64,000 nt of DNA from Tetradesmus obliquus. Its lineage: Eukaryota > Chlorophyta > Chlorophyceae > Sphaeropleales > Scenedesmaceae. Location: assembly GCA_030272155.1 (NCBI GenBank), contig CP126201.1, positions 124,001 through 188,000 on the forward strand. The letters are read 5' to 3'. This document shows positions 118 to 64,000 of this stretch, piece by piece. Below the pieces are notes generated by a model. It did no database searches. It was not told where the DNA came from and saw nothing but the letters and a program-made list of their open reading frames with translations. Positions within the stretch are counted from its first letter, which is position 1, and each line of letters opens with the position of its first letter. The position numbers were made by a program, and so were the translations under genes.

Positions 118-2460
118 TACTAAACAATGTTGGCAGGCACTGCACACAGCCCTTGGCTCACGTCTTGCAGTGGCTGGTTGCATGCAGCGGAGGCAGCTGC
201 AGTTGTGGCAGCTTATGGAAGTGCATTTGTGGCTGCTCAGGAGGCATGATGAGCAGATTGAAGCCACCCCAGTAGCATGACATGTTGAGGCACTGCGGCC
301 TCAGCACCTGCCGCTGCTGCGCCCGTTGCTGCTGCTGCTGCCAGGTGTGGGCGCAAGCCGCTGCTGATGATCAGCTACATTGGCATGGCTGCAGCGCTGG
401 GCGCAGTGGCGGGGCTCAGCCTGCTGCCAGGCGCGTGGAGTGCTGCTGCTGCTGCTGCTGTTGCTGCTGCTGCGGCTGCTGCGGCTGCTGCGGCTGCTGC
501 GGCTGCTGCGGCAGTGACGGTTGTGTTAGTGGCGTAAAATTTGCAGGCAGTTTTGACAGTCCGCGCAGGTGTTGCTGCATGTCAGGCATCCTTCTGCATG
601 CCATTGTACAGCTTCGCAGCTGTGTGAACATACAGAGAGCGGGCCCAGATGAGGACACCGCTGCGACTTCTGGTGCAATGCGCTGCTGCCGCTGCTGCTG
701 CACCCCGCCTGTTTCACTGCTGCAGTGTCTGCAGGCGCTGCTGGTGTGCTGATGGTGCTGCTGGTGCTGCTGTACGTGAGCTTCTTTGCCATCGGCTCCG
801 GGCCTGTGACCTGGGTGGTGCTGAGTGAGGTGCTGCCCCCTGCCATCAAAGGGCCCGCAGCCTCACTGGCCACAGCAGCAGCCTGGACAGGTGAGGCTCT
901 GCTAGAAGTTGAAGGGGCTGCTACCCAACCTACCTGCCGCTTCAATCCGCTGAATTTGTATGCCAGCAGTGTCCTGGTGTGCAGTTGGGAGTGTGCAAGG
1001 TGCTACGTGGTGAGCAGGTGGCGCTCCAAGCGCCATGTCGTGGGTCGACAGGGTGCCCAGCGTGGTGTGGTGCTGAGTGAGGTGCTGCCCCCAGCCATCA
1101 AGGGGCCCGCAGCCTCACTGGCCACAGCAGCAGCCTGGACAGGTGACGCTTCTACTGAACCACACCACACTGGTGTTGCGAATTCCATCTGCAGGCAACC
1201 TGGCTGTCGAGGGTAGCTTCTACGACCTGCTGACCTTGCTGTATGTGCGCAGCTTCTAGCCTTGCCAGAGCTGTGTTGACGTGGCCAACCACGCCCACTG
1301 CTGTTCCTCATGATATCCTGCCGCAGGCAACTTGGTAGTCACGCTAAGCTTTGACGGGCTGCTGGCGGCTCTGCTATGCAGCTTCTAGTGGACACAGCTA
1401 TTGACAGTGTCCTGATCTTCTGCTGCAGGCAACCTAGTCGTCACGCTGAGCTTTGATGGCCTGCTGGCCCGGCTGGGCCTGGGTGGCACCTACCTGCTGT
1501 ACGGCCTGGCCAATCTGGGAGGGGCACTGTACGTGGCCAGCCTGCTGGTGGAGACGCGGCGCAGGTGAGCTGTGCTTCAGCCGGCTCTGTTGTCTACTGT
1601 GGTTGACACTGTGCTACTTGCTGTACGGCCTGGCCAACCTGGGTGCAGCGCTGTACTTGGCCAGCCTGGCGGTTTAGACGCGGCGCAGGTGAGGGGGCAT
1701 GCTGCTAAGTTGTAGGGTAGGTGAGGCGTCAGCAGATTCATAAACCTCTTGGTGATCTGCTGTTTGGTGAGCCTGCGTGCTGGTGGTCTGTTGTGGCCAG
1801 CCTGCTGGTGGTGAGGTGGCGTGCTAGTAGTGTGCTTTCACCTGATAGGTTGCGGGAAATAGTTGTTGGTGGAGCAGCTGCTGGTGGAGACGCTGCGCAG
1901 GTGAGCCTGCCTGCTGCTGGTCTGCTGTGGGCTGTCGGCTGCTGCGCAGCATTCTGGGTGGCCAGCATGTAAGCTGCCAGCAGTGCTCTCGGCCTGGTGG
2001 TGATCTGCTGTGCGGTGAAGCTGCCTGCTGGTGGTGAGGCGTGGGCTGCAGATGCTAGCAGCCAGCCTGGGCGTGGAGGCAAGTGAGGCCAGCTGTGTGG
2101 CCCAGCAGAGAACGCATGATATGTTGCCCGTGATGATGTGCGTGTGTATTGCAGCTGGCGTCTTGTTGCATACACTTGTGTTGCAGACACATGCTGCAGA
2201 CATTTGTGTTCAGACTGTCACAATGCTGTGATGGTTTACACAGTCTTAATGGTGACTGCATCTGCCAACAACCTGCAAATTGCCTGCTGAAATCACCTGC
2301 TGCTGCAGGAGCCTGGGTGAGATTGAGGAGCTGCTGCTGCTGCCAGACATCGATCCGCGCCTGGCTGCGCTGCTGCCGGCGCTGCAGCAGCATGCCAGCG
2401 GCGCCAGCGATGACAGCAGCGCGCGGCCCGTTGGGGGTGCCAGCCCCACGCGTGGCAGCC

Positions 2461-2505
<45 letters not shown>

Positions 2506-3293
2506 GTGGTGGGGTGAGGGGGTCGCCACGAGCTCTATTCAGCAGGATGGGGCCTGGTCCAGGGCCAGGGCAGTACAACCAGCAGCAGCAGCAGCAGCAG
2601 GCATGGATGTCTCAGCAGCAACAGCAGCAGCAGCAGCAGGCAGCGCGGTTTGGGTGGCCCGGGGCCCTGCAGAACCACCAGCCTGCTGCTGCTGCTGCTG
2701 CCAGCCCCTTTTATGGGCTCAGTGGCGCTGCAGGCGCGGCAGCACTGCACACGCCCCCGACAGCAGGCCCAGCAGCAGCAGCTGCAGCAGCAGGTGTGGG
2801 TGAGGAGCATGATGAGCTGGACCTGCCCACTGCACTGCCACATGAGCTGGCCAGCTCGCAGGAAGATGTAGCAGCCTGCAGGCAGCACTATGTGGCGGGC
2901 TGGGCGCTAGGGGCCTCTGTAGAGGCGGCTGCAGCAGCAGCAGCTGAGGCGGAAGCAGCACAAGCAGCGGAAGCGGACATGTTTATCGGCTCTGCAGCAA
3001 CCGGGAGCTATGCGTCTGAGGCAACTGCATCTGTGGCCGAGTCTGCGGAAGCAGCTCCAGCCAGGCAGCTAGGGCAGCAGCCGCAAGCTGAACAGCAGAA
3101 GCACACACAGCCGCAACAGCAGCAGCAGCAGCAGCAGCAGCATGCTGCACAGCAGTTGGGTGCGGGGTTGCAGCGGTTTGGCAGCAGGGAAGCTGGGGCA
3201 CCTGTTGCCAAGGCACCTGCTGAGGCGCCAGTTGTTGTGACAGGGTTTGTGCTGCCGCAGCAGCGTGGCGATGCTCCAGGTGGTGAGGCGTGA
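1..3293 (+). CDS. MFS sugar transporter, plastid glucose translocator-like (3' part)
   Basis: The gene enters from the left edge. Exons: <2-78, 345-430, 726 (or 735)-890, 1429-1564, 2309-3293 (stop). The encoded half of a 12-helix sugar porter carries the family signature DRCGRKPLL across the first junction, a helix followed by SGPVTWVVLSEVLPPAIKG (the usual PxxIRG-type loop), the last helices GGTYLLYGLANLGGALYVA, and VETRRRSLGEIEELL, which corresponds to the PETKGRSLEEIE end of plastid glucose transporters. Exon 2 appears to end at a GC donor (CCAG|GCGCGT), the only donor that keeps the reading phase. Ordinary relatives stop soon after SLGEIEELL. Here the last exon continues for about 310 residues of Ala/Gln/Ser-rich sequence. 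It probably moves hexose across a membrane, likely the plastid envelope, but the targeting peptide is outside the window. The family is firm; substrate and compartment are inferred. Confidence 0.75.
1063..1145 (+). repeat. Tandem copy of transporter exon 3 tail with its 5' splice site
   Basis: This stretch repeats the 3' half of the exon ending at 890, from GTGGTGCTGAGTGAGG to GCCTGGACAG, including the following GTGA donor. It differs at only a few bases. It lies inside the intron and the reading frame is still open. Confidence 0.85.
1195..1388 (+). repeat. Two decayed head copies of transporter exon 4
   Basis: Two stretches, near 1195-1258 and 1325-1388, begin with an acceptor-like CAG and then GCAACYTGG, as does the real exon starting at 1429. 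Both turn into stop codons (…GCAGCTTCTAG) after about 60 nt. The nearer copy still reads NLVVTLSFDGLLA; the further one is more degenerate. Confidence 0.75.
1605..1975 (+). repeat. Decayed tail copies of transporter exon 4
   Basis: The intron after 1564 contains at least three degraded copies of the exon's 3' end. The best is 1605-1690 (LLYGLANLG, then an in-frame stop, then ACGCGGCGCAG|GTGAG). Others lie near 1754-1830 and 1872-1905; the latter ends in GACGCTGCGCAG|GTGAGC. Each retains the junction-like CGCAG|GTGAG or part of it. Confidence 0.7.
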
Positions 3294-3680: not shown

Positions 3681-6600
3681 ATGCAGTGCTCGCAACACAG
3701 AACGGCTGTGAGCTATGATACAGTCGCGAGAGAAACGCTGAGACGAACGTCATGTACACAATGTAGCAGCAGCAGACCTCGCCGGACACCAGTAGTGCAG
3801 GCGACCAGCAGTAGCAGTAGCAGCAGCAACCAAGGCGTGGAAGAGTTGCCTGGGCCTCGCAATGCATTCGTACCTGGGCAGGAATCAGAGAGCAGGAGGC
3901 AGCTGTTTAACCGGATATCACCCGTCTATGATGAGGTGAGCAGCAGCACACAGGTTTGCATGAGTGCATGCAGTTGCTCGTTGGCATGCCAGGAGCAGCC
4001 TAATGCATGGAGCTTGTGCTAAGCACTGCTTGTCAAGCAGTACTTGCAAACCCAGCCAATTTGATTTCAATCCATGCTTGCATAATCCAACGGCCCCTGT
4101 ATGCAGCATGTGCATGGTAGATGTCAGATTCATACTTGCAGCACCTTCTGCCTTTGCAAAGGCACGAGGTTTTACAGGGCACCATGTAATGCACGCACAC
4201 AGCAACTGCACCTGCTGATGCCAGTACGAACAGGCCTTGCGCTGGTCAGCAGGTTGTGCAGAACATGCAGTGTCACACAACGCCAAGCTCGTGGACAAGC
4301 TGCCCTTTGAGCCGCATGTGTCGGTTGCTGCACCCAGGGCCCCTGATGCCATGCATGCTGCGCACTGCCCTGCAGCTGCAGCTGCGTCAAAATCAACTGT
4401 TGCGGCTGCCTCGCGTTGTTAGCTGCAACACATGCCTCACCCTCTTGACTCTGACCCCGCACAACTGCTGGCGTGGCCTGCTGCAGCTCAACGACCGGCT
4501 CAGCCTGGGCCAGCACCGCGTGTGTTGATTCATACACAATGAGCCCAGCTGGCTATCCACTTCACAGTTGTTCTCCTGCTTGCAAGATATGTTATATCAC
4601 TGAGCGAGTGCCCTGCAGTGTGCAAAAGCCACTCACACACAGCCGCAACTGCTGTTTGTGCCGCTGCAGCTGAACGACCGCCTGAGCCTGGGCCAGCACC
4701 GCGTGTGGAAGCGCATGGCAGTAAAGTGGGCCGGGGCAGCACCAGGGCAGCGCGCGCTGGATGTGTGCTGCGGCAGCGGCGACCTGGCGCTGCTGCTGGC
4801 AGCAGCTGTGGGGCAGGGCGGCAGCGTGACAGGGCTGGACTTTGCGGCAGACATGCTGCAGGTGGGTACCTGGCTGCCCGCGTACGTGTCACAGGTTTAT
4901 GGTTGCATTTACGTGCATGCCGCCGCATGCGTTGGCATGTAGGTTGTGCAACATTCCCACAATGTCAGGGTTGGTTTGGCAGCAGCTGACTCGCTGCGGC
5001 TTTGAGTTATGAGCAGCCAGCGCTGCTCACCAGAGATCCTCCCTCCCAGCAGCAGCAGCACAGGCGGCTGCACGGGCCTGCATGCAGCTGCCCCTAGCGG
5101 CGTGCACTGTGTGTGAGTGCAGAGCGGCAGCGTGGCTGGGCTAGAGTCTGCAGCTGACATCCTGCATGTGTGCGCGGCGGGGCGCCGCCGGGCAGCAACT
5201 GCATCGAGGCCAAGTAGCTGAAGCAGTGCTGCCTGCCTGCCTGCTCACCTGCCTGCCTGCCTGCCTGCCTGCCTGCAGGATGCCTCCTGCCGCGAGAGGC
5301 GGCAGCAGCAGCAGACGCGCCTGCTTGCCTGGAAATTTTCTACTTAACAACAGCACTGTGTTTGACTGCTCATGCTCTGCTGCCTGCTCTCCTGCCATGC
5401 AGGACGCCTCCAGCCGGGAGGCGGCAGCAACAGCAGACGCGCCCTGGCAGCGCTCCGCAAAGGTGACCTGGGTGCAGGGCGATGCGCTGGAGCTGCCTTT
5501 TGATGATGCCAGCTTTGATGCCGCCACCATGGGCTATGGCCTGCGCAACGTTGCGGACATCCCTAAGGCGCTGGCGGAGCTGCGGCGCGTGCTGGTGCCT
5601 GGGGGCAAGGCTGCTGTGCTGGACTTCAACAACAGCAGCCAGCCGCTGGTGGATAGCCTGCAGGTGTGTGTTTTACAGGGGAACCCGTAATGTGTAGTTG
5701 TGTGTTGGAATGTATTCTTGTTTCCTGGCAGGTGCTGTTCTGGACTTCAACAACAGCAGCCAGCCGCTGGTGGACGGCCTGCAGGTGTGTGTTTGAAAGA
5801 GGGCATATGATCGGCAGCTGCAGAGCTCGTTCTTTGTGTGCGTGCTTCTAGCAGAGACGGGATGAGGTGTTTCAGCCAGCCAGCACTGGTGCACAGCCTG
5901 CAGGTGGGAGGAGGGGCAGGGGTAGGGCGCTGCACAGCGTGTGTGATGGCAGTGTGGAAGCAGCAGTTGTCATTGCCTGCCCTGCACCTTAGCAACAGCA
6001 TGTGGCTGCTCTAGACTTCAACAAAAGCAGCAGCCAGCCGCTGGTGGGCAGGCTGCAGGAGGGAGGGGGGTTTGTGCTGCAGAGTGCTGCCCTGTCAGCT
6101 GCATCAGGCATTGCAGGCCTGCACTTCACCAACCCGCTGCTGCCAGTAAGCCTTGTCCCTGTCTTGATGTATGTCGTACCGCGCTGACGCCGTAGGGCGT
6201 GCTGCTGCACCATGGCTGCTGCCCGCCACTGACTTGCGTTGCGTGAAGCTGGGACGCTGCTTATCCCTCTTTTTCAGCATTCGCAGCTGTTGATGCGCAT
6301 GCTACTGCGTGCTGCTCCACATCAATGGTAACAGGCATGTCTCCTTTTGCTCCGCAGGGCCTGCTGCTACAGCAGGTGGCAATGCCTGGTGCTTGCCCCT
6401 TCAACGCTGGCAGCTGCTGACAAGCCGCCTTGCCCTGCTGCTGTTCGCCTCTCCCCTTCCGCCACCACCTCCCCTCTGCCCCATCACTCCTCCTGCAGGG
6501 CCTGCTGCTGGGGCAGGTGGTGGTGCCTGCTGCCGCCTCATTTGGGCTGGGTAGCGCATTCTACTTCGTCCCAATCCTGGTGCTGCTGACAGGATTGTCA

Positions 6601-6933
6601 TTTTCATGCCTGGCCTGCCGAATGGCCTGCTGCCGGAGCAGGTGCTGGTGCCTGCATTGACTGCTGCTGACAGGTTAACCGATCCCTCTGCTGCTAAAAT
6701 GCTTGGCAATTTTGATGCCTGGCCTGCCACAGGGCCTGCTGCTGGAGCAGGTGGTGGTGCCTGCTGCTGCCTCGTACGGGCTGGGTGACGAGTACCGCTA
6801 CCTGCGGCCCAGCATCAAGCGCTTCCCCAACGGCAGGGAGCAGGAGGCGCTGGCGCGGCAAGTGGGGTTCAGGAGTGCAGTGCATTACGAGATCGGCTTT
6901 GGCATGATGGGCTGCCTGGTGGCCACCAAGTGA
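3681..6933 (+). CDS. menG: 2-phytyl-1,4-naphthoquinone methyltransferase (phylloquinone synthesis)
   Basis: Exons 3681-3935, 4670-4861, 5403-5663 and 6733-6933, all phase 0, give 302 residues. Residues 1 to about 60 are a Ser/Arg-rich chloroplast transit peptide. The UbiE/COQ5/MenG core starts at RRQLFNRISPVYDE. It continues with LNDRLSLGQHRVWKRM, the SAM-binding motif I ALDVCCGSGDLAL, motif post-I VTGLDFA, then QGDALELPFDD, ATMGYGLRNV and LRRVLVPGGKAAVLDF. It ends HYEIGFGMMGCLVATK, as in plant menG (MGNLVA near the C terminus). The enzyme methylates demethylphylloquinone with SAM in the plastid, giving the photosystem I quinone. The GYGLRNV and SLGQHR signatures favour MenG over mitochondrial COQ5. 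The ATG at 3681 is the first in frame; an upstream GTG was not used. All three introns carry copies of exon edges. Confidence 0.92.
4484..4528 (+). repeat. Head copy of menG exon 2 with acceptor
   Basis: CTGCAG followed by CTCAACGACCGGCTCAGC repeats the start of exon 2 at 4670 (LNDRLSLGQHRV), about 186 bp upstream of it. It diverges into TGTTGA after 44 nt. The acceptor is intact, but using it would terminate translation early. Confidence 0.85.
5228..5277 (+). repeat. (CCTG)n microsatellite in menG intron 2
   Basis: Tetranucleotide CCTG/TGCC repeat, with interruptions, ending at a CCTGCAGGATGCC sequence that is itself similar to the start of exon 3 (CAG|GACGCCTCC). A further exon-3-like stretch (GGATGCCTCCTGCCGCGAG) follows at 5278-5297. 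Confidence 0.75.
5724..6059 (+). repeat. Three tail copies of menG exon 3 with 5' splice site
   Basis: The 3' end of exon 3 (CTGGACTTCAACAACAGC … CTGCAG|GTGTGT) recurs at 5734-5785 (near-identical, donor kept), near 5870-5901 (only the CAGCCAGC…CTGCAG|GTGGG end kept) and at 6005-6059 (one codon inserted, reading LDFNKSSSQPLVGRLQ). Divergence does not simply increase with distance. Confidence 0.85.
6349..6690 (+). repeat. Three head copies of menG exon 4
   Basis: GGCCTGCTGCT…CAGGTGG occurs at 6358, 6499 and 6616 before the real exon at 6733. The first two are preceded by CAG acceptors; the third has AAT instead. The copy at 6499 reads GLLLGQVVVPAAASFGLG before an in-frame stop. Confidence 0.85.
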
Positions 6934-8190
6934 CGCACAGCGTGACAGGTGTGATGTGGATTGTTTGCGGTGTGGCCTATGGAGTGTGGCGCATTGTATA
7001 GGCTGTTTTGTGGCCACCAAACTGCGAGGCTGCAGCAGGCTGTGGGGCCACTGCGATCGAGGCTAGTCATTGTCCCACCTGATCGAGGCTAGTCATTGTC
7101 CCACCTGATCGAGGCTAGTCATTGTCCCACCTGATCGAGGCTAGTCATTGTCCCACCTGATCGAGGCTAGTCATTGTCCCACCTGATCGAGGCTAGTCAT
7201 TGTCCCACCTGATCGAGGCTAGTCATTGTCCCACCTGATCGAGGCTAGTCATTGTCCCACCTGATCGAGGCTAGTCATTGTCCCACCTGATCGAGGCTAG
7301 TCATTGTCCCACCTGATCGAGGCTAGTCATTGTCCCACCTGATCGAGGCTAGTCATTGTCCCACCTGATCGAGGCTAGTCATTGTCCCACCTGATCGAGG
7401 CTAGTCATTGTCCCACCTGATCGAGGCTAGTCATTGTCCCACCTGATCGAGGCTAGTCATTGTCCCACCTGATCGAGGCTAGTCATTGTCCCACCTGATC
7501 GAGGCTAGTCATTGTCCCACCTAATCGAGGCTAGTCATTGTCCCACCTGATCGAGGCTAGTCATTGTCCCACCTGATCGAGGCTAGTCATTGTCCCACCT
7601 GATCGAGGCTAGTCATTGTCCCACCTGATGGGCTGCCTGATGGCCAGCACGTGATGCACAGCTGCTGAGACGAATGGCATACAGAATGCGGCTGCCACGC
7701 TCACATTTTGGGGTGGGCTGCCTGGTAGCCAGCAGACAACTGTGTTGTGGTGTTGCGGCATGTGGCTGCAATGCGGCTGCCAGTCTTGTTGGTCATCATA
7801 AAGAAGACAGGAGTGCAGTTGGTGTGTGTTCTGGGGTGCTTGCAGCAGCAGCAGCAGCAGCAGCAGCAGCTCATTGATGGCAGCTGTTCACCAGCTCCAG
7901 CAGTATTGTCGCTGCTGTGTTGGAGCTGCCACAGCTGCGGCGACTGCAGTTGCATCAAATGAAAGCTGTACAGCCTGAGATCGAGTGGGTGTGCTACAGC
8001 CTGGCAGCCTCTGCCGCAGGCTGATCGGTGTGTCACACCAAGTTGCCGCCCATCAGCAAGTTGGTGGTTTAGTCGCGTGGATCGCTGTGTCTTGTCTGTA
8101 GACGTGGCCGTGGCTGCTTGAGTAACTTTCTGCTGCTGACTTAAGCGTAACTACTTATAAGGAGTTCTGCCTTGGTCTGCTGGAAGGCAT
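6934..8190 (+). other. menG 3' flank with minisatellite and decayed copies of the gene end
   Basis: No gene seen. Besides the 26-bp minisatellite it holds degraded copies of the menG stop-codon region: near 7000-7030 (GTGGCCACCAA), 7627-7665 (GATGGGCTGCCTGATGGCCA…TGATGCACAGC) and 7708-7740 (GGGCTGCCTGGTAGCCAGCA). A (CAG)n run lies at 7843-7870. Confidence 0.6.
7055..7626 (+). repeat. Minisatellite, 22 copies of a 26-bp unit
   Basis: Exactly 22 head-to-tail copies of a 26-bp unit beginning GATCGAGGCTAGTC and ending CCCACCT fill 572 bp. The only difference seen is G to A at 7523, the first base of copy 19. It starts 122 bp after the menG stop codon. Unbroken units without unique spacers exclude a CRISPR array. 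Confidence 0.97.
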
Positions 8191-11732: not shown

Positions 11733-11760
11733 TGGCACACTGGCCATGGCCAGTGTGCCA
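11733..11760. repeat. Perfect 28-bp palindrome
   Basis: The half-site TGGCACACTGGCCA is followed directly by its reverse complement, with no loop. A smaller inverted repeat (CCTCAG-TGA-CTGAGG) lies just upstream. Confidence 0.95.
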
Positions 11761-20229: not shown

Positions 20230-21990
20230 ATGATGTCCACACTGCCTTTGCTGGTGCTGCTGCTGTGCGCGGCAGCTGCTGCAGCAAGTGCAGATGACAA
20301 AGGTGGGTGGCCAGGCTGCATCTGATCACACCTGATGCCCCATTCAGTACCTTTACTGTGTGCTATGCAACCTGCCTTGACAGCCATCCCAGCCAGGCAA
20401 CAGTAGCAATGTGTGTCACTGCAGCTGCGCTGTGTTGACAGCAGCGCTGTCTCGGGCCAGCAGCTGCCACCAAGGCTATTGGCGCCGCATTCACAACCAA
20501 TACGTCAACTGTATGCATCACTGAAACACCGAGCTCTGAAAGCTACCACCAAACTCCTGCCCTGTTGACCTCTGCGTCAGCCGGGCCGAGCACCAGAACT
20601 GCATTGGCCAAGCGCACTGTGCTCATTGCATGTCGCTGCCGCCCTGCTGCGCACCCTGTGCACCTCGCTTCCCCTGCCTGCAGGCTACGATCTGGTATCA
20701 GAACCCCTATGCTGGTCCGAGCCAAAAGATCCTGCTGCCGTTGGCATCAGCAGCACAGTGCAGCAGACTCCAACACCCGCCAAGTTCCAGTTCATTGTTG
20801 CAGAGCACAACAAGATGCGAGCTGAGCACGGCGTGGGGCCCCTGATGTGGGACGACACACTTGCACAGTCAGCGGCAATCATCACAAACCAGTGTAACTT
20901 CTCACACGACCCCACGCTCCCTGTCGGTGAGTGCCGCCCTGCTGCATCCTGCAAGCAGCAGCTGCTGCCTCATTTGGCAACTGCAGGAGCTGCCTCATTT
21001 GGCGGGCATCAGCAACAGCAGCAGCAGCAGCAGCTGCGGCTGGCCTCTGGTGAAAAATGACATTCTTGACTGGCAGCTGAGTTGCACTACCCACTGCTGA
21101 GTGGCACTACCCACTGCTGAGTTGCACTACCCACTGCTGAGTTGCACTACCCACTGCTGAGTGGCACTACCCACTGCTGAGTTGCACTACCCACTGCTGA
21201 GTTGCACTACCCACTGCTGAGTGGCACTACCCACTGCTGAGTTGCACTACCCACTGCTGAGTTGCACTACCCACTGCTGAGTGGCACTACCCACTGCTGA
21301 GTTGCACTACCCACTGCTGAGTTGCACTACCCACTGCTGAGTGGCACTACCCACTGCTGAGTTGCACTACCCACTGCTGAGTTGCACTACCCACTGCTGA
21401 GTGGCACTACCCACTGCTGAGTGGCACTACCCACTGCTGAGTGGCACTACCCACTGCTGAGTTGCACTACCCACTGCTGAGTGCTAAGAAGCTTGCAAGG
21501 CCTTTGCCTACAGCAGCAGGCAGCGCAGACTGACTCCAGGTAACCACACGGTGTTGACCAGAAGCCAGTAGCCAGCAAGTGCGAGCGCCAATCCCTGGCA
21601 GCAGTGGCACATCACTGTTGGTCAAAGCAAAGGATGTGCGTGCCACAGACTGTGGCTGTCCTGGCAGGGCGCCGCCTGCAGCCGCCAGTGGACTTCAACT
21701 GCACACAGCTGCACCCACCAGCTGTTGCTTCGCACTGCCTGCTGTTTGGGCCTCACGCACTTGCACTGCACTGCTGCAGGCGAGAACTTGGCAGCAGCCA
21801 TCAGGTCCTCAATCACGGAGGAGGAAGCGCTGGAGCGCGCGATCACCAGCTGGTGAGCCGGGCGTGATCTAGGGTTTAGCTCTTCAAGATGCTGGTGACT
21901 GTGTGGTTTAGGATTGAGCACTAGCAGATGCGCTGCAGCGCGCAAGTTAGATGTTGAGGGGCCTCCCGGCAGTAGCAGCAGCAGCAGGAG

Positions 21991-37032: not shown

Positions 37033-38122
37033 CTACTGCGGCTCCGGAAGCTGTCTGCTGTCTGGCGATGGTGGTGCAGGCAGCCGGAAGGGCTCGCCCT
37101 GCTGCTGCTGCATGCCTGGCAAGTCCTGCAGCGGGGCGGCTGCTGCTCCTGTAGCATCTGCTGCTGGCTGCCGCACCTGCAGACGCAACACATACACACG
37201 ACGGTGCGGTACAGCACTGTGAGACCAGCGGCAACCAGCTTAGCTACTGCCTAGAGCAGAAACACTGCAAGGCACGCGCTGCTGGCTGCGCGCAGCGCAT
37301 GCGCATCTCACATGCTGCGCTGTGCTCGTCCATCTGCCTTCAGCTCAATGCGCAGCAGCGGCTGTACCGCTGCTGCTGTGCCTCACCGACTCAGCGAACC
37401 AGCTGCACTTCTAGCTGCACACAATGTGCGCTCTTTGATCATTTAAGACAAGCTTGCTGCAAACAAAGGGCTGTGCCACCGCCACCTCTCAACCTGTGTT
37501 CCATCGACTCAGCTGGGCTTCCACTCACCCGCACCAGCTGCGCCTGCATATGCTGTGCTCTGCTTGGATAGTTCAAGACAAGCGCCCCTGCTAGCTTTTG
37601 ATCAGTGTAACAACGACTCAGCCCCCTCCACTCACCCGCACCAGCTGCGCCTCAAACAGCAGCGCCTCGCCCCGGTGCGTGTCCCAGCGCCGGGCAGCGC
37701 CAAAGGACGGCCGCGGCGGGCCCGTCTGCAGGGCATGCAGCGGCAGCAATGCCAGCTGTAAGCCGGCGTGTACTGTACCTCACAGACCTAGCGCGTAAGG
37801 TGTGGCTTAGAGGCATCACGAGCTGTGGTCATGAAGGCAGCCGCTGACCAGACACGACCTGCTTGCAACATGATGCAGCACACCTGGGTTCTTTCAAATG
37901 CAAGAGCCGTACACATTGTCCTTGTACACCTCATGTGCTGTGCGTCACAAAGTAATTCATGTGCTATGCAAGCCATTACTTTCTGAGCTGCACAGCAGAA
38001 CCTCTGCCAGCCACGCCTGCTGGCCCTGACACCCACGCCGCGGCAAGCCATGCCATGCTGTCTCACCAGGATGCCGCAGGCCCATGCATTGGGCAGCTGC
38101 TGCCTTCAAGCTCATACTCTAT

Positions 38123-54205: not shown

Positions 54206-56468
54206 ATGGTGCAGCGTCTGACCTACCGCAGGCGCCATGCCTATGCCACAAAGAGCAACAGGATTCGCGTGCTGAGGACCCCTGGTGCGCGCCACTGACT
54301 GCACTTGTCTGTCGCACTCATGGTGGCTGCTGGGTGTGCTCAGCCCTGTTCTGCGCAGCACAAATGGTTTGCATGCTGTTTGAGGATGCTTCGAGCTTTT
54401 TGTTCAGATTGCTGTGCCGCAGTGCGCTGCAACACGAGACATCCAGCACAGCAGCAGCACCTCCCTGACTGCTGCAGCTTGGTGTGCTGCTTCTTTGCTG
54501 CCTGTTCCCTCCTGCTTTGATCTGCTGCAGGCGGCAAGCTGGTGGTGCAGACGCAGAAGAAGCCCACAAAGGCACCCCGCTGCGGAGCCACTGGCGTGAC
54601 TCTGCAGGGCGTGAGTAGCATTGCTTGCAGGCAGGGCAAAGCAGAGCAGCAGCTGCGGCAGTGCTGAGCCCAGCAGACGTCGGGGCATCATCAGCAGTGA
54701 CAGTGCAACTCAGTATTGGGCAGGATATGGTGCTGCTTTGTGCTGTCGGCAACACAGCAGCGCAGTTGGTTCAGCCTGGAGCATGTTGGCGGCGGTTCCA
54801 ACTGCTTCAGCTGGAAGCTGCGGCGTGCAGGAGCAGCAACTGCCTTCAAATACACTACCAGCAGCAGTGATTGCGGCAGCACTTGCAGCTGGGGGAGCAG
54901 CAGCAGCAGCAGCAGCACACTGATGGAGTGCAGCAGCAGGGGACTGCTCGGGTGCAATGTATAGATGTGCGGGTTCTGGCAGCGACTGGGGCAGCAGCTG
55001 TGGTGTACTTGACACATCTCCTCCAGACTGCTTGTCGCGCAGAACGTTACAGCTGTTGGGTCAGCGACAGCCCTAGTAACCTGTCATGTTGTTACAGCCT
55101 GCAGGTGGTGTAGCCTGCAGCGCACTGGTCAGCCGCGTCGGCATGTTACCGCTCTGGAGCTGCAAAACCCATCAGAAGACAAGCAGCTGCAGCAGCAGTG
55201 GCAGCAGCTGCAGTAACCGCAGCACACTGTGGCTTCCTGCTCTGGCAGCGCCAGCAGCAACAGCAATGGAAGCGATGCTAGCAACATGGTTTGGCAGGTT
55301 GCGGCAACAACCGCCACCAGCAGGCACCCAGCGTCAATGCTCAGTCCCTCACGGCACACTGTCGTTCTTGTCCTGCCGCACCTGCCGCACCTGCCACACC
55401 TGCCTGCCTCCCTCCTGCCTCCCCGCAGCTGCCTGCGCGCCGCCCCGCGGACTGCAGCGCCAAGCGCCTCGCCAAGCGCCACAAGAGCGTGAACCGCGCC
55501 TATGGCGGCCACCTGGCGCACGGCGTGGTGCGTGAGCGCATCATCAGGGCCTTCCTGATCGAGGAGCAGAAGATCGTGAAGAAGGTGCGGCTGGGGACAG
55601 CCTGCGCAGCATGCACAGCATGAGTGGTGCCGTTGCAGCAGCAGTGTGAGGTTGCAGCAGACGGTCGCAGCACAGTTGGCGCATGTGTGGCCCGCTGTGT
55701 TGGGCAACGGCAGTAGTCAACGTGTTGTGCAGAAGACCGTGAAGAAGGTGCAGCCTGCCCAGCTGCAGGACGGCAACCAATCACTAGGATGGCAGCTGTG
55801 ACTGCAGCTGTGCATATGGTGTAGCGGCTGTGCGATGCGTCACAGTGCTTGCTTGTGCGCCATGGCAGGCCCACAGCACAGTGCATGTGGTAGCAGCGCA
55901 GTTGGGCGCACGCAGCACGCTGTGCTGGGCAGTTGCAGCGATGATGCTTGGTGCAGTTGTGTCGTCAGGCCTCCTGGTCGCCAGCAGATCACAGGCAAAG
56001 GTTGTTGTGTGCTATGCTGCATCAGTTGTGATTGAGGTGGCTCTGCTGTGCTTTTAGGCCATGTATACTCCAGGTTCCCTGCGCGAGCAGCAGCAGCAGC
56101 CTGTATGTTGTGGTCAGGTTTGCTGCACTGCACGTCCAGCCCTGCACCGATAAAAGCAGTGCCGGCCTTCGCCACTGGCTGTTTGCTGAAGAGACGGTGC
56201 TAGAGCAGCTGCTGGCCTGCCCTCCTTTTGTGCTGCACGCGTGTTGTGTGGTGCGCACGGGCATAGCTTGCGCACATGCAATTGAGTCGCAGGTGTCGAG
56301 ACCCGTGGTGTGCAGGGTTCATGTGGAACAGCTGCGGCTGTGTGTTGTCTTCTGGTTGCTTTCATTTCGCATCCTGCTTGCTCACACGAGTATGTTTGCT
56401 CGTTCCGTTGCCGCTGCTGCCACCAGGTGCTGAAGCTGCAGAAGGCCAAGGAGAGGAGCAGCAAGTAA
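54206..56468 (+). CDS. RPL34: 60S ribosomal protein eL34
   Basis: Exons 54206-54284, 54531-54610, 55429-55584 and 56427-56468 encode 118 residues. The start [20 protein letters not shown] is typical of eL34. It is followed by [57 protein letters not shown] and a basic end [10 protein letters not shown]. The protein is a structural component of the large cytosolic ribosomal subunit. Length matches the family and all junctions are GT-AG. Of the metal-binding cysteines seen in some eL34s only partial remnants ([14 protein letters not shown]) are visible. The last exon has just 14 codons including the stop. Confidence 0.96.
55729..55753 (+). repeat. Decayed tail copy of eL34 exon 3
   Basis: GCAGAAGACCGTGAAGAAG|GTGCAG repeats the end of exon 3 and its donor (GCAGAAGATCGTGAAGAAG|GTGCGG, ending 55584) about 163 bp downstream in the intron. 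Confidence 0.8.
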
Positions 56469-58049
56469 ATCAGCTGCAGCTGCGTAGCCGGTTTGTGCTG
56501 CAGCTACCCACACATCAGCAGCAGCAACAGCGCCACGGCCAGCAGCAGGCAAGCAGCCACAACACGGGCATTGATGCAGCAGCTGCGGCATCTCCGCTGT
56601 TGAGTGCAGGCTGGTGTTTTGCATGTTGACTGTGCTGGGCTGTTTGCTGAGCAGCAGCAGCAGCAGCAGCTGCTGCTAAGGGCCTGGTAGCAGCGGGCAG
56701 TGCTCTGCGTACCAGCCTTGTGTGGTGTAACTCGACTTACAGATTCCCTGTTGACTTACATGTCGGCAAGCCTAGGTCAGCTGATGAAGCTTTGTAATCA
56801 ATAGGTTTGCAATCTGCGATGGCTGCTATGTGTGGCACATTGCACGGCTGATACAATCAATGCGTAAAGAGTTGTCAAGCAGGCAGTACGCAACCGTGGC
56901 ATGCAGTGCATAAGACCTGGCAGGCAGCACAGCCATCGAGGCCCTTCAACAAAAGGGTACAGGCACATGTGGACTGAACTCGAGAATAACGGTGAAAGGC
57001 GTTACAACTGCTGAACAACAATGGTACCTCAGCCAACATTCTTCCAATGATGCAGAACACACTGCGCACAACTTGTGCGTTGGCATTGTATCAAAACAGT
57101 GTTCTTCAGATATCACACGATGCAATGCGGCATGCAGGGATGCCGACTCAAAATCACCCACTGCGCCTGCATGCACTTTGAAATTGACTGGCAAAGACTG
57201 TGTCCAGATGAACAATGACCTCCCAGCGATGTACTGCTGATGCTGGAGTCACTGCTGCGCTGGGGACAAGCTTTGGAACTCCCCCTGGCACACCAGCTGT
57301 TCAGCTGCATGCGTGTCTGCGGACCACCCGCCAGTCACAACTGGCGTCATAACTTATGCAGGCTGCAGAAAATGCTCTGCATGCCAAGCCGCCGCTCCAC
57401 ACTATGTATGGCAAACGGAGTTCCAAACGTACTGCGGCAGCTAACTTGAAGCACCTGGATGAAGTCAGATGCAAAATGCAGAAAAGCTAGTGCTTTCTTC
57501 CGCAGAGACCTCATGACAAACTAGCACACAGAAGCCCGCCGTTAGGGCCGCAAATTGGAGCCCCTTGATAGGCTGCAGCATCCTGTAGCCATCTTATGTG
57601 CAACAGCATGCTGTAGCCATCCAATGTGCAACAGCATGCGCATGCAAACATGCAACTGACAGCAGCCATGACTGCCAGTATGCACGTAGAAAACCCATAA
57701 CTGCAGTCGCAGCCGCCGCATGTCCGGTGCTTGCTTTTGGCAAGGCTGCAATGCCTCGTGGCCGCCTCGCATCATCATCACACTTGAATGCATTCTGCTG
57801 GAAAGCCGATATTGCTGATGCACTGGTGAAGCTGCAGCCTTGCTTGTGCGTGCACAAGCTGCTAATGCATGCTCAGCTCGCTGTCTGCCGAAATATAGCC
57901 TACATTGCCTGCTTGGCTTCAGACGCACCAGCGACTAGCATTCCATACCCAGCAGCTGCACCCTAACTCACAGCTGCCAGGCATGCACTTCCAAGGCCAC
58001 CACGCGCGACACACTGCTGACACGCAAGGATGCAGCCTCTCTATCAACA
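56469..58049. other. Convergent intergenic region, eL34 / GDT1 gene
   Basis: 3' flanks of two convergent genes. TGTAA at 56726-56730 is a possible eL34 poly(A) signal. A short open piece at 57240-57310 reads ESLLRWGQALELPLAHQLFSC. It echoes the LLRLVxALELP text of the relics near 19790 and 28720, so it may be a fragment of the same decayed family. Nothing else recognised. Confidence 0.4.
56726..56730 (+). terminator. Candidate poly(A) signal TGTAA for eL34
   Basis: TGTAA on the coding strand about 258 nt past the eL34 stop codon. This is the standard green-algal signal, but a five-base motif is weak evidence alone. Confidence 0.3.
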
Positions 58050-58398
58050 TCACAGCATGGTGTAGACTGTGGCAGCCGCAAACAGCAGGAACATGATGCC
58101 AGTGACCAGGTTGACCGCCTTCTCACTGATGTACTTGGCAGCCATATTCGTCTCAACGGCAGTCAAACCATAGTCTACATTGCCTGCTCGATCCAGCCGC
58201 ACACGCCGCGGCGCTCCTTCAAAATTACGGGTGCACCCTACAGAACTTGCTCCACATCTGCACAGCCAGACCAGCATTTAAGCCCGCCACGCAAGGCATC
58301 ACAGCATGGTGTAGACTGTGGCAGCCGCAAACAGCAGGAACAGGATGCCGCTGACCAGGTTGGCCGTCTTCTCGCTGATGTACTTGCCCGCCATGTTC
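58050..58398 (-). repeat. Two extra copies of the terminal exon of the GDT1 gene
   Basis: Downstream of the true last exon (58720-58550) the stretches 58398-58299 and 58146-58050 repeat its 3' two-thirds. Each reads KYISEK(T/A)(A/V)NLV then FLLFAAATVYTML and the stop codon, without frameshift. They lack the exon's start (NPVGVAVGATAGHALATAL). Each is preceded by an in-phase AG (…ACTGAG|ATGAAC; …GTTGAG|ACGAAT), so use as an alternative last exon is conceivable. Confidence 0.88.
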
Positions 58399-58549
58399 AT
58401 CTCAGTGTCAGTTAAACCATAGCCTACATTGCCTGCTCGACCCAGCCACACACGCAAATGGCGCTCCTTTCAATTACAGCTGCACCCTACAAAACTCGCG
58501 CCACGCCCCTGCACAGCCAAACCAGCATTCAAGCCCACCACGCAAGGCA

Positions 58550-60817
58550 TCACAGCATGGTGTAGACTGTGGCGGCCGCAAACAGCAGGAACAGGATGCC
58601 GCTGACCAGGTTGACCGTCTTCTCACTGATGTACTTGCCAGCCAGCGCCCCGCCTGCAACAGCCAGCGCCGTGGCCAGCGCGTGCCCCGCAGTGGCACCC
58701 ACTGCGACGCCCACAGGGTTCTGCGAGCAGCAGCAACAGTAGCAGCAACACGATGTCAGCATATGTTCAAGGCTAGGCTGCTGCTGGTGTTGCAGCACGA
58801 CCGTCAAGCCTATAACACCAGGCTTGGTTCCTTTTCTTTGCGTTGGACATGGTGTACAACAACATTGACTGCCAGAAGCGCAGCCGGGCAGCTGACAGAC
58901 TCAACCCGATCTGCACCTGCGACAAAGCAGCGTCCAGCACACCAAAGTCAGATAAACCAAACCACACACGCCGCGTCCAGCTTGGTGTAAAGCAAAGACA
59001 CTGCACACACAGCATGCAACAGATATGGCATCAGCAGCGCGCACTCACATAACAAGTCCAGCTCTACACCCAAAGCAACAACAGACGCTGCGCTGCACCC
59101 ACCTGCGCCGCGCCCAGCGCGATGGTGGCCAGCATGCTCCTGTCGCTCCACGCGTCCCCACACGCTTCACAGTTTCCGCCATGTCCTGGGTGGACCTCGC
59201 AACTTGAAGTACAGCACAACACTGCGCACACAGCAGCTGGCATGCACCCGCCCAACAGTCGAATTGCAAATCACAAGATCAAAGACCCAAGCAAGACGCC
59301 GCGCTGCACCCACCTGTGCCGCGCCGAGCGCGATGGTTGCCAGCATGCTCCTGTCGCCCCACTCTGCCAGGAAGATGAGCCCAGCCACCTCCAGCAGGCT
59401 GGCAAAGGGCTTCTTCTTGCCGCTGCTGCTGCTCTCAAACTCCGCCACAGCCTCCTCAGCGTCAGCCAGCTCCTCCTCACTGGTGGAGGCACCAGTTGCT
59501 TCGGCGTCACGCGCAGCCTGTTCAACATGGCAGGAAAACACACACGTGACAAGAAAGTCAGGAGTGGACCAGAAACTGGCAAGCGAAGAAGGCAGGCCTA
59601 AGACGCCACACACAGGCAGGCAGCCAGGCAGCCAGGCAGGCAGCCAGGCAGGCAGGCAGGCAAGCACGGCAAAATGAGTGCTCCTTGACTTGCAGTCAGC
59701 GTCAGCCAGCTCCTCCGCGCTGGTGCAGGCGCGCGTAGCCGCGGCGTTGTGCACAGCCTGTGTACAATGCACACAACAGGGGTGAAGATCAGCCAGAAGC
59801 AGGCGGGCAGGCATGCAGTGGACTGTTGCCCGTCCAGTGCGATGAGCGGCTGCCAGCTCCTGTTTGCTGGTGGAGGCGCCCGAGCCGCCGCCGGCGTTGT
59901 GTGCGCAGCGTGCACGGCAATGCCACACACGGGGTAGGCAACATGAAACTCCAGCAGCTGCATGCTGCGTCGTTTCTTATCAACCAGTCAAAACCCCACC
60001 CACCTTCAATGATGATGATTCAAGAACACCAGCATCCACACTGCCACCTCAGCTGTGTAACACCACCGCCACCTCCGTTGCCATCTCATTTACATACCAC
60101 ATGCAACACCAACAAACATACCACCACCCACCTTGATGCCAAAGGACACCAGCAGCGCACCAGCCACCCCAACTGCCCTACACAGCGTTACCTTCCAGCA
60201 CTGCACAGCAAAGGCAACACAAAGCCCACCCTCTGCTCCCCACCTTGAGCGCCTTGATGCCGATGAACACCAGCAGCCACGCTGCAACCTCAAATGTGTT
60301 ACACTGCGTCACCTTCCGCTGCTACATCACAAGCGTGTTACGCTGCTACATCACAAGCGTGTTACATCACACAAGAAACACACCAAAAGTAACACACATA
60401 AACCACTTGCTCCCCACCTTCAGCGCTTTGATGCCGAAGAACACCAGCAGCGCCACGCCCGCGATCTCGCCCACAGGCAGGCTGCTCTTCAACGCATCCG
60501 GCACCCTGCTGAACGCAGCACCAATCCCCACACTGATCAGCGTCATCACAGCCAGGGCAGCCACACTGCCCACAAAGCTGATCCAGCGGCCCAGCTTCAT
60601 TGCAAGCAATGCGGCAATGAAGAAGGTCTTGTCGCCGAGCTCAGAGAGGAAGATGAGGCAGAAGGCCGCAAGTAAGCCGCTGCGTCCTGCAGGGCCGTTG
60701 ACCAGGTAGGCCTGCAGGCTGCTGGCGTGGCCGGAGACGTATAGGGCGATGCAGGCGGCGATGGCGGCTGCGGCTGCGAGCAGGCCTAGGATGAGAGTAC
60801 GGCCGGGCTTTTGGGAC
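58550..60817 (-). CDS. GDT1/UPF0016-family Mn2+/Ca2+ transporter, PAM71/CMT1-like (5' end unresolved)
   Basis: Three exons are secure: 60817-60418, 59517-59314 and 58720-58550 (stop), giving 257 residues with matching phases. The family hallmark ExGD(K/R)(T/S) occurs twice, in LSELGDKTFFIAALLAMKLG and LAEWGDRSMLATIALGAA, each within a half of three predicted helices. A charged loop (STSEEELADAEEAVAEFESS) lies between the halves and the end is FLLFAAATVYTML. Plant and algal relatives sit in the thylakoid or chloroplast envelope and supply manganese to photosystem II; plastid location is inferred from the family. The first secure exon starts in phase 2 (G|TCCCAAAAG), so at least one upstream exon with the transit peptide is missing. 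It should lie within 60820-62200. Every intron holds decayed copies of exon edges. Confidence 0.85.
59101..59171 (-). repeat. Tail copy of GDT1 middle exon
   Basis: On the minus strand this reads WSDRSMLATIALGAAQ and then GTGGGTGCAGCGC, copying the last 55 nt of the exon 59517-59314 and its donor. One Gly codon of the ExGD motif is changed. Confidence 0.85.
59693..59935 (-). repeat. Two decayed head copies of GDT1 middle exon
   Basis: 59693-59760 and about 59838-59900 repeat the beginning of the exon at 59517 (AGGCTG…GCCTCCACCAG…GAGGAGCTGGC…GAC, minus strand) with increasing divergence. A (CAGG/GGCA)n run lies between the nearer copy and the true exon (59613-59660). Confidence 0.8.
60000..60300 (-). 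repeat. Three decayed tail copies of GDT1 first secure exon
   Basis: The exon end GTGTTCTTCGGCATCAAAGC…AAG|GTGGGG recurs near 60240-60290 (GTGTTCATCGGCATCAAGGC), 60130-60175 (GTGTCCTTTGGCATCAAG|GTGGG) and, very degraded, 60005-60050. The first two keep the AAG|GTGGG junction. Confidence 0.8.
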
Positions 60818-62235: not shown

Positions 62236-62949
62236 ATGGTCAGCCAGACAGCAGCTGCTGTTGGAGGCGACGTCATCACAGCTATGCATAGTCAGCAACA
62301 CCCCACCAGCAGCTCTAGCAGCACCAGAAGCACACATTTATGGGGATCTAGCAACCTGCAAGCACTTGTCTCACATGCTGGCACAATGTCAGCAGCAGGG
62401 GCAGTGCCAGCGTCAGCAACAGCAGCAGTAGTCCCTTGGTCGGCAGGCAGCCAAGTGCTGCAGCTGCCTGCATACACATCCTACGGCAGCACTCCTTTCT
62501 TCCCAGTGATCTACTCCGTCCGGGAGCCAGCAGCAGCACAGTCAGCAGCAGGGCCTAGCCAGCATGCTACAACTACCAGCACAGTCAGCCCACAGCCTGC
62601 AGCCAGCACTAGTAACAGCAGCAGCAGCAGTAGCATTGAAAATGAGCATGGGCAGCATATCAGCAGTAGCAGCAGCAGCAGCGGCAGCAAGCAGCGCCCC
62701 TGGTCGGAGATGTGGCGCAGTGCTGGGGCGCATGCCCTGGGGGGAGGCATCCCTGGCAGTGCAGCAATGGTGGTGCAGGTGAGGCCCCGGGGGGGGGGGG
62801 GGGGCATCCCTGGCAGTGCAGCAATGGTGGTGCAGGTGAGGCCCTGGGGGGGGGGGGCATCCCTGGCAGTGCAGCAATGGTGGTGCAGGTGAGGCCCTGG
62901 GGGGGGGGGCATCCCTGGCAGTGCAGCAATGGTGGTGCAGGTGAGGCCC

Positions 62950-62981
<32 letters not shown>

Positions 62982-64000
62982 TCCCTGGCAGTGCAGCAAT
63001 GGTGGTGCAGGTGAGGCCCTGGGGGGGGGGGGGGGGGGGGCATCCCTGGCAGTGCAGCAATGGTGGTGCAGGTGAGGCCCTGGGGGGGGGCCCATCCCTG
63101 GCAGTGCAGCAATGGTGGTGCAGGTGAGGCCTGCAGGCTGCACTGCTCTCATTGCATCTTGAACCTGTCATACGGCATTGACTGCCAGCTGCACGCATTT
63201 ACCGGCACGCATGGTGAAGCCAGCAGCGGCGGCATGATGCAGTAGCATGCAATGCAGCTGGCACCCTTTTCGGTGTGCGGATAGCAGCTGCCCACCACTG
63301 CAGTGCTTTGCTGGTGACCTAGCAGCTTGGCGTGCTGCACGCCTGCCCTGCAAGAGAGGGCAGCGCTGGCTTTGCGGCTGTACGTTTCGAGAGCACCAGC
63401 TCATGTCAGACAGCGCAGTTGCCATGACTGCTCTATGTATGTGTGGCAGTTCATCCTGGCTCACTGCTTCTGCCCTGCTGCTGTTGCTGCTGCTGCTGTA
63501 GGTGCTGTCGCTCATGTGGCTGCGCACCACGGTCAACTACCAGTACCGCTTCGGCACCAGCACCAGCGTGGCACTGCGCACACTGTACAGGTGAGCGCCT
63601 GAGCGCCTGACAGGTGACGCGCCTGACAGGTGACGCGCCTGACAGGTGACGCGCCTGACAGGTGACGCGCGCTGCATTGCCTGCAGCAGCATGCAACCTC
63701 CACACTATCAGCAGCAGCAGCAGCACATTGACACAAATTGGTGTGAGCAGCAAGTCTGGCAGACTGGCAGTGCTGGTATCAGTAGCATGCACACGTGTCG
63801 CCTGCAACAAGCCTGGGCGCAGCCCGACTCTGCCTGCTACTGTGCTGCGAAGCTCTCTGACAATGCTATAACTGTGTCATCACTATGCCGCAGGGACGGC
63901 GGTATTGTGCGCTTCTACCAAGGGGTGGGGCCAGCGCTGCTGCAGGTGCGTAGCTAGCAGACAGCTGCTGCAGAGAGTGGTGTGGGCCAGCAGCTGTGAA
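62236..64000 (+). CDS. Mitochondrial-carrier (SLC25) family protein, N-terminal part
   Basis: Exons in the window: 62236-62778, 63502-63590 and 63894-63945; a donor at 63946 shows the gene runs off the right edge. The first 150 or so residues are Ser/Gln/Ala-rich without clear domain. The carrier repeat begins at about residue 155: [20 protein letters not shown] continues into [19 protein letters not shown] and ends [20 protein letters not shown]. This is the usual order of helix 1, loop and helix 2 start (…EGGIxxFYRGxxPxLxQ). The normal PX(D/E)XX(K/R) gate motif after helix 1 is not recognisable (SLMWLRT instead), as in an atypical plant/algal subgroup. Substrate unknown; location could be mitochondrion or plastid envelope. 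The start ATG at 62236 follows a GTG and is the first in frame. Confidence 0.78.
62746..63128 (+). repeat. Sevenfold tandem repeat spanning exon 1 / intron 1 junction of the SLC25 gene
   Basis: The last 31 nt of exon 1 (CATCCCTGGCAGTGCAGCAA … GTGGTGCAG), the donor GTGAGGCCC and a G-run form a unit present seven times. The first is the true exon end (62778). The G-runs vary from about 9 to 29 bases (longest at 62951-62979, next 63021-63040), accounting for nearly all length differences. The exon-derived parts are practically identical. Confidence 0.97.
63591..63666 (+). repeat. 16-bp tandem repeat at exon 2 donor of the SLC25 gene
   Basis: Directly after the exon 2 donor (TACAG|GTGAGCGCCTG) the string GCGCCTGACAGGTGAC repeats about four times. 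Each unit regenerates ACAG|GTGA, a potential 5' splice site. Confidence 0.92.

What the first reader, a model, noticed from the sequence alone, without database searches (positions are those of the whole stretch)
811..63666. Exon edges and their splice sites are tandemly copied inside introns across most genes of the window
Seen directly: the sugar transporter, menG, CAP-lectin gene C, FKBP, eL34, GDT1 and SLC25 genes all carry copies of an exon tail plus its GT donor downstream of that exon. Several also carry copies of an exon head plus its AG acceptor upstream. Copies range from identical to barely recognisable, so duplication is recurrent. The repeated unit always straddles the splice junction, which simple random tandem duplication would not predict. 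It may show a junction-linked mechanism (R-loop, slippage at AG|GT-flanked repeats, or intron growth by tandem duplication), or a source of cryptic and alternative splice sites. I know of no standard name for such a pattern.
Basis: partly seen in the sequence, partly recalled or inferred. Interest (0 to 1): 0.88.

Follow-up and report, generated by a model that had tools for sequence, protein, structure and literature searches.

The report
Exon edges copied into neighbouring introns
In this green alga the ends of many coding exons have been copied, repeatedly and about 120 bases apart, into the non-coding DNA next to them; the copies look like decaying remnants, and why they gather so strictly at exon ends is an open and now testable question.

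Summary
The genome fits Tetradesmus obliquus. In 304 kb (window plus 240 kb, three contigs) there are 148 independent local duplication families. 95 touch the edge of a predicted exon; 33.3±4.9 are expected by random placement (0 of 300 shifts reach it). In three genes whose models match known proteins, 14 of 14 do (6.0±1.8 expected). Spacing is characteristic: about 120 nt (95-165), with further peaks near 240 and 360. Copies lie on the non-coding side, nearly always include the edge, and often lose similarity within 10 nt beyond it.

Corrections: stop-codon ends are copied too (GDT1, CLPR2), so splice junctions as such are not required. Copies are absent from the three known proteins and decay almost neutrally while the exon stays constrained.

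Uniform neutral duplication is excluded (about 515 non-coding-only families predicted, 43 seen). Best account: ~120-nt tandem units stay recognisable only where a constrained exon end refreshes its copies. An edge-targeted duplication mechanism is not excluded.

The parts
735..890 (+). sugar-transporter exon, donor ACAG|GTGAGG after 890; source of copy 1067-1142
   Evidence: PF00083 on 737-889; sequence
1067..1150 (+). copy of exon tail 815-890 plus GTGAC donor, in the intron, lag 252, 96%
1308..1370 (+). copy of the head of exon 1429-1564 with its acceptor, lag 102, 82%
1614..1693 (+). copy of exon tail ending 1564 plus donor, lag 124, 86%, in-frame stop in copy
1878..1906 (+). 29-nt copy of the same exon tail plus donor, lag 336, 97%
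4462..4524 (+). copy of the head of menG exon 4670-4861, lag 184, 86%
5119..5170 (+). degenerate copy of the tail of menG exon 4670-4861, lag 306, 81%
5238..5321 (+). copy of the head of menG exon 5403-5663, lag 125, 83%
5733..5802 (+). copy of the tail of menG exon 5403-5663 plus donor, lag 121, 91%
   Evidence: exon supported by P0001
5877..5915 (+). further degenerate copy of the same exon tail (pairs with 6031-6070)
6004..6059 (+). further copy of the same exon tail, lag 395, 83%
6350..6392 (+). copy of the head of menG exon 6733, lag 375, 83%
6490..6552 (+). copy of the head of menG exon 6733, lag 234, 91%
6581..6655 (+). copy of the head of menG exon 6733, lag 108, 84%
7626..7662 (+). 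weak copy of the menG stop-codon end (6905-6941), lag 721, 89% over 37 nt
37496..37652 (-). FKBP-like exon tail and its copy (37496-37545 with 37605-37652), lag 109, 84%
   Evidence: gene name by eye
55324..55584 (+). eL34 exon
   Evidence: PF01199, E 2.4e-10
55729..55754 (+). 26-nt copy of eL34 exon-end sequence (55566-55591), lag 163, 92%
58550..58720 (-). GDT1 last exon with stop codon
   Evidence: P0121, 100%
58297..58393 (-). copy of the GDT1 stop-codon end, 3 differences in 90 nt; its 3' flank is similar too
58048..58144 (-). second, outermost copy of the GDT1 stop-codon end; similarity to the neighbouring copy stops at the stop codon
59083..59151 (-). copy of the tail of GDT1 exon 59314-59517 plus donor, lag 211, 93%
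59696..59761 (-). copy of the head of GDT1 exon 59314-59517, lag 240, 80%
59845..59901 (-). further degenerate copy of the same exon head
60204..60282 (-). copy of the tail of GDT1 exon 60418-60817 plus donor, lag 174-175, 80%
60131..60196 (-). further degenerate copy in the same series
63603..63670 (+). 16-bp x 4.2 array CAG|GTGAC just behind the donor of the predicted exon 63502-63590

Best explanation
Exon-anchored repeat turnover. Tandem duplications with a unit of about 120 nt arise in and around genes. A duplication inside an exon spoils the protein and is lost. One that overlaps an exon end is tolerated, because the original exon end stays in use and the extra copy sits in the intron or 3' flank. 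Later exchange or gene conversion keeps refreshing the copies from the exon, whose sequence is held by selection, and sometimes re-amplifies them into arrays. The non-coding flanks on both sides drift apart and drop out of the exchange, so the recognisable unit shrinks to the constrained part: the exon end plus splice signal, or plus stop codon. Purely non-coding duplications have no fixed master and vanish quickly. Shown: enrichment at exon ends, spacing, outer boundary near the edge, near-neutral copies with a constrained exon, stop-codon ends copied. Inferred: gene conversion or unequal exchange. Unexplained: why about 120 nt.
For: 95 of 148 families at exon edges against 33.3±4.9; 10 inside exons against 17.5; repeated in four stretches on three contigs; 14 of 14 in protein-supported genes. 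Stop-codon ends of GDT1 and CLPR2 are copied, and the outermost GDT1 copy loses similarity at the stop codon (by eye). Block outer ends pile up 0-9 nt beyond the edge (50 of 157); 12 of 157 stop inside the exon. Polarised changes at 34 edges, 1,802 sites: exon-only 6/6/46 by codon position, one-copy-only 68/61/91, so the exon is constrained and copies nearly neutral. Flanks are far more diverged than co-duplicated neutral DNA of the same age should be (73-93% of pairs, by divergence class, below the modelled 5% level), yet 45-67% exceed the 95% level of unrelated flanks (arrays included), as expected if flanks are old and edges refreshed. Fresh arrays with units of 118-120 nt exist. Spacers are not dispersed elements. 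At donor 103611 (L004) the farther copy shows no difference in 33 shared sites and the nearer 15%, not a simple stepwise series.
Against: Conversion was not shown directly; no second strain's DNA was available. Several loci (acceptors 106521, 133401, 65652 and R2 38132) keep flanks about as similar as plain co-duplication predicts, and at GDT1 and CLPR2 similarity of the nearest stop-end copy runs on into the 3' flank; only one boundary falls on a stop codon. The ~120-nt spacing is strong at exon edges (66 of 82 families with smallest lag 95-165) and weak in families that touch no exon, which a general ~120-nt process does not by itself predict. Of 5 fresh full-length arrays with 105-140-nt units, 4 contain predicted exon and the fifth consists of copies of the exon end at R2 67832. 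Differences in the most similar exon-copy pairs are more third-position-biased (0.70-0.75) than a neutral copy plus a freely evolving synonymous exon should give (at most about 0.5), and copy-only changes keep a slight third-position excess (0.41). Most exon calls come from a home-made gene finder.
Confidence: 0.46

Rival explanations
1. Edge-targeted duplication. New ~120-nt copies are made preferentially at exon ends by a DNA- or transcription-linked process (breaks, nicks or nucleosome positions at exon borders), and the enrichment reflects where mutations happen.
For: Enrichment is as strong in the most similar families (13 of 18 against 3.9 expected at 95% identity or more); all 5 fresh full-length arrays with 105-140-nt units carry exon-end sequence; the lag peak is edge-specific; in the arrays read, the outermost copy has a different flank close behind the edge.
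Against: Stop-codon ends of GDT1 and CLPR2 are copied too, and no DNA- or splicing-level process can recognise a stop codon; this rests on two genes and one boundary. Inner block ends show no AG/GT preference. The copied stretch on the exon side varies (5th-95th percentile 25-89 nt for donors).
Confidence: 0.27
2. The copies are kept for a function, for example as decoy or alternative exon ends that regulate splicing or supply alternative protein ends.
For: AG and GT at the copied junctions are kept in 93-99% of aligned copies (partly an alignment-end bias); some copies stay open with few, mostly silent changes, notably the stop-codon ends of CLPR2 (4 differences in 90 nt, all at third positions by my reading) and GDT1 (3 in 90); third-position bias of the most similar pairs.
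Against: The best-matching menG, GDT1 and CLPR2 proteins lack the copies; one-copy-only changes are nearly even over codon positions (68/61/91); 19 of 84 best copies carry frameshifting gaps in the exon part.
Confidence: 0.12
3. Ordinary neutral tandem duplication, uniform over the gene, with exon-internal events removed by selection and copies slowly decaying.
For: Copies nearly neutral; exon-internal families fewer than expected; direct orientation, short distance; some loci with flanks as similar as this predicts.
Against: With the same ages and 0.98 detection it predicts about 515 non-coding-only families; 43 were found. Most flanks are far too diverged.
Confidence: 0.06
4. RNA- or cDNA-mediated copying: spliced or partly spliced RNA is reverse-transcribed and converts or inserts exon sequence beside the exon, so that copying stops at exon borders.
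For: Similarity often stops close to exon borders.
Against: Copies keep several intron nucleotides (GTGAG), and in the cases read they are not followed by the next exon (not tested systematically); at stop codons mRNA continues into the 3' UTR, so RNA gives no reason to stop there.
Confidence: 0.05

Closest known systems
[quoted passage not shown]
   Same: Tandem duplication in a gene whose extra copy is hidden by splicing; exons with copied donors mostly end in AG (34 of 43), giving AG|GT.
   Different: There a duplicated exonic AGGT segment makes a NEW intron whose ends come from the exon. Here existing introns and 3' flanks gain copies of exon ends followed by non-exonic sequence, and acceptor and stop-codon ends are copied as well.
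Small tandem duplications from break repair (PMC8355091, passages seen)
   Same: Short direct tandem copies, no mobile element.
   Different: The passages speak of short (<100 bp) duplications and mention no exon-end preference; here almost no lag is below 95 nt and exon ends are strongly preferred.
Concerted evolution of tandem repeats / minisatellites (recalled, no paper read)
   Same: Arrays with fresh near-identical units, ends less homogenised.
   Different: Here one unit is a constrained coding end acting as master, at many unrelated genes.
Introner elements (PMC9860276, search listing only)
   Same: Large change of intron content in eukaryotes.
   Different: The spacers and copies tested are unique to their gene, not dispersed.
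Tandem alternative / mutually exclusive exons (recalled)
   Same: Duplicated exon sequence with splice signals beside the original.
   Different: Mostly only exon ends are copied, inner block ends lack splice signals, copies decay.

Membership tests
[quoted passage not shown]
   in menG and CLPR2 the proteins continue at a farther exon and the copies lie inside longer introns; predicted introns are rarely near 120 nt (median 280; 7 of 105 below 100)
Introner elements | similar sequence dispersed over many genes | tested here: not met
   two whole-genome DNA searches hit only themselves (the tool skips simple and very common words); 12 spacers have no relatives in 304 kb other than their own array and, for one, simple-repeat-like matches
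Tandem alternative exons | copies flanked by acceptor and donor and kept coding | tested here: not met
   no AG/GT enrichment at inner ends (40 donor- and 30 acceptor-type copies); one-copy-only changes 68/61/91 by codon position
Tandem alternative exons | copies present in transcripts | tested here: inconclusive
   absent from the representative best protein matches for three genes; other cluster members not seen; no RNA-seq at hand
Concertedly evolving tandem repeat | direct head-to-tail copies with a characteristic unit | tested here: met
   lag peak ~120 with 240 and 360; arrays of 118-120 nt
Concertedly evolving tandem repeat | homogenisation between copies by exchange or conversion | tested here: inconclusive
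   edges younger-looking than most flanks, some discordant copies, other loci without discordance; no population data
Stwintron / recursive splice site | AG|GT in the intron used as a splicing step | not testable with these tools
   needs RNA intermediates; stop-codon ends and a non-AG exon end (CLPR2 GAC|GTGAGT) also carry copies

The most novel reading that the evidence does not exclude
The genome has a duplication process that is itself focused on exon ends, with a built-in step of about 120 nt, so that exon borders steadily emit copies of themselves outward and thereby lengthen introns and 3' flanks: a border-directed mode of intron growth.
Probability: 0.22. Interest if true: 0.9.

Novelty: new variant of a known kind. 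Interest (0 to 1): 0.72.

Why it matters
How introns grow is mostly inferred from transposons and random indels (recalled). Here a large share of predicted exon ends (43 of 191 donors, 40 of 205 acceptors at a conservative threshold) carry self-copies with a preferred spacing, which makes intron growth readable gene by gene. If conversion from the exon is right, it is a clean natural case of selection on one repeat unit keeping a family of non-functional neighbours recognisable. It also warns that gene predictors may call decaying exon-end copies as exons: the home-made finder did so here.

Tried and rejected
Self-trained gene finders collapsed (one giant gene) and were dropped; the seeded version was used. 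It still called copies as exons, so lower-scoring exons linked to a better one by a repeat were removed, together with weak or short ones (210 of 497 exons kept). Searches use that set; and later edge counts use it with 12 hand-set exons for three window genes (211 exons). Family counts use 292 of 391 pairs; long blocks and heavily covered arrays were dropped. Lags below 25 nt and simple repeats were filtered throughout, so short-unit arrays such as 63603-63670 are not in the counts.

Recursive/nested splicing as the reason for the lower lag limit: rejected as a general cause, because acceptor ends show the same limit (1 of 71 below 95 nt, 1 of 73 for donors), exon starts with GT are not enriched there (7 of 40 against 26 of 165), and CLPR2's copied exon ends in GAC. 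~120 nt as intron length: rejected. Copies as mini-exons: rejected. Dispersed element in the spacers: rejected. A strain difference in CLPR2 did not help to date conversion. The 'stop' edge at R1 127134 is a mis-called donor, so of the 3 of 18 stop edges counted at least one is wrong; genuine stop ends with good copies are GDT1 and CLPR2, menG is weak. The flank expectation assumes a neutral rate of 0.7 of the exon-copy divergence and 1% indels; the 515 assumes 420 edges with 90 usable positions each.
Full report
WHAT WAS EXAMINED. The window is C11:124001-188000 of a 104.66-Mb, 17-contig genome. The GDT1 protein read from it is identical over the 258-aa query to Tetradesmus obliquus OEZ85_005516, and size and contig number agree with the T. 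obliquus assembly listed as 104.7 Mb, 17 contigs, GCA_030272155.1 (PMC12571836, passages); the match to that assembly is inference. I added 240 kb from the same genome: 100 kb beside the window, 100 kb of C1, 40 kb of C3.

THE COPIES ARE REAL. The window shows the described pattern by eye and by self-comparison. Over 304 kb there are 268 direct and 6 inverted local pairs within 1.5 kb, array pairs included. At a lower threshold one 100-kb region gives 98 pairs and its reversed sequence none. A strict donor motif falls inside duplicated blocks 46 of 108 times against 12.1 expected; the reversed control motif 1 of 10 against 1.1.

THEY BELONG TO EXON ENDS. With exons from a seeded gene finder, 148 independent families split into 95 touching an exon edge (33.3±4.9 expected by random shifts, 0 of 300 as high), 10 inside exons (17.5 expected) and 43 touching none (97.2 expected). 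Each stretch repeats this: window 15 of 27 (5.1±2.1 expected), C11 downstream 42 of 64 (15.9±3.3), C1 32 of 46 (10.4±2.8), C3 6 of 11 (2.0±1.2, 1 of 400 shifts as high). To avoid relying on the gene finder I used three genes whose exons match known proteins: menG (100%), GDT1 (100%) and CLPR2 (99%; C1 1,019,250-1,022,549). There all 14 families touch an exon edge (6.0±1.8 expected, 0 of 1000 shifts as high); these genes were not picked at random. In CLPR2, tblastn with the known protein shows extra copies beside most exon ends, including the stop end.

ANATOMY. Copies of 3' exon ends lie downstream and copies of 5' exon ends upstream: 73 donor, 71 acceptor and 4 stop-labelled pairs point outward, none the other way. 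Lags avoid values below 95 nt (1 of 73 donors, 1 of 71 acceptors), peak at 95-165 and again near 240. A gene-model-free 12-mer spectrum shows the same peaks near 120, 240 and 360. The class with smallest lag 95-165 is the edge-bound one (66 of 82, 18.5 expected); lags below 95 are not enriched (2 of 10, 1.8 expected). Of 157 exon/non-exon pairs 12 stop before the exon edge and 50 stop 0-9 nt beyond it. The inner end inside the exon varies and has no splice motif. Fresh arrays show the build: exon end, spacer, exon end, spacer... exon end, then a different flank. In one search the outermost copies of 34 edges mostly have flanks near the level of unrelated sequence (11 of 34 above its 95% point, by my reading of the rows).

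EXON ENDS, NOT ONLY SPLICE JUNCTIONS. Stop-codon ends are copied too. GDT1 has two such copies: the nearer has 3 differences in 90 coding nt and a similar 3' flank, and the outermost loses similarity at the stop codon. CLPR2's stop end has a copy with 4 differences in 90 nt, all at third positions by my reading, and a partly similar flank. A stop codon is visible only to translation, hence to selection on the protein, not to DNA repair or the spliceosome. This favours selection-shaped boundaries over a junction-linked mechanism, but it rests on two genes and one boundary.

COPIES ARE DECAYING, THE EXON IS NOT. At 34 edges with two copies, changes seen only in the exon fall 6/6/46 on codon positions 1/2/3, changes seen in one copy only 68/61/91 (1,802 sites). 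So the exon is constrained and the copies nearly neutral, with a slight third-position excess. Against simple neutrality, the most similar exon-copy pairs differ at third positions more often (0.70-0.75) than expected. The best-matching proteins of menG, GDT1 and CLPR2 contain no copy.

WHY PLAIN NEUTRAL DUPLICATION FAILS. If duplications of these ages fell evenly, about 515 non-coding-only families should be visible; 43 are (detection 0.98). And if exon end and flank had been duplicated together, flanks should still be similar; in 73-93% of pairs, by divergence class, they fall below the modelled 5% level, although 45-67% exceed the 95% level of unrelated flanks. Some loci do keep flanks about as similar as co-duplication predicts. 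On balance flanks look older than the exon ends beside them. Refreshing of copies from the exon by conversion or unequal exchange explains this, the edge restriction and the boundary at the end of constrained sequence. It does not explain the 120-nt step, nor why all five fresh arrays with 105-140-nt units carry exon-end sequence. I hold it at 0.46, with edge-targeted duplication (0.27) as the strongest rival.

RELATION TO WHAT IS PRINTED. Ten text searches of an open-licence library (capped lists, titles and abstract openings seen) showed no paper describing exon-end copies at a preferred spacing; subscription papers are not covered. Tandem-duplication intron gain (PMC4974935, passages) and break-repair tandem duplication (PMC8355091, passages) are the nearest seen.

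LIMITS. 304 kb of 104.66 Mb; a home-made gene finder outside four loci with protein support (sugar transporter by domain only); no RNA-seq; no second strain's DNA; the whole-genome spacing search did not complete (21 busy replies).

Noticed in passing
window 7055-7629: 26-bp minisatellite, 22 copies at 99%, just behind menG; the weak copy of the menG stop-codon end lies at its far side.
   Followed up: no
window 21076-21483 and 22268-22821: Two further minisatellites (20-bp units at 96%; a 12/68/184-bp ladder) not linked to predicted exons.
   Followed up: no
window 58048-58644: GDT1 stop-end copies keep near-intact reading frames (MAGKYISEKTANLVSGILFLLFAAATVYTML and a more diverged one) with TGA; possible alternative last exons.
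   Followed up: partly
L013 about 2693-2806 (C1:1,022,693-1,022,806): Copy of the CLPR2 stop-codon end, reading frame and stop kept, 4 differences in 90 nt; candidate alternative last exon.
   Followed up: partly
protein P0125: A GDT1 relative from a transcript source reads past the donor of the exon matching 59314-59517 (GAAQVGSGAG...), as if that intron were retained.
   Followed up: no
window, throughout: Very dense CAG/CTG trinucleotide runs (many of the TRF rows).
   Followed up: no
genome C13:199612-206092: Cluster of mitochondrial-carrier (PF00153) exon hits, some with a stop inside, suggesting tandem gene copies or pseudogenes.
   Followed up: no
L004 9612-9871 (R1 103612-103871): Farther copy of an exon tail identical in 33 shared sites while the nearer copy is 15% diverged; good single candidate for recent conversion.
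   Followed up: partly
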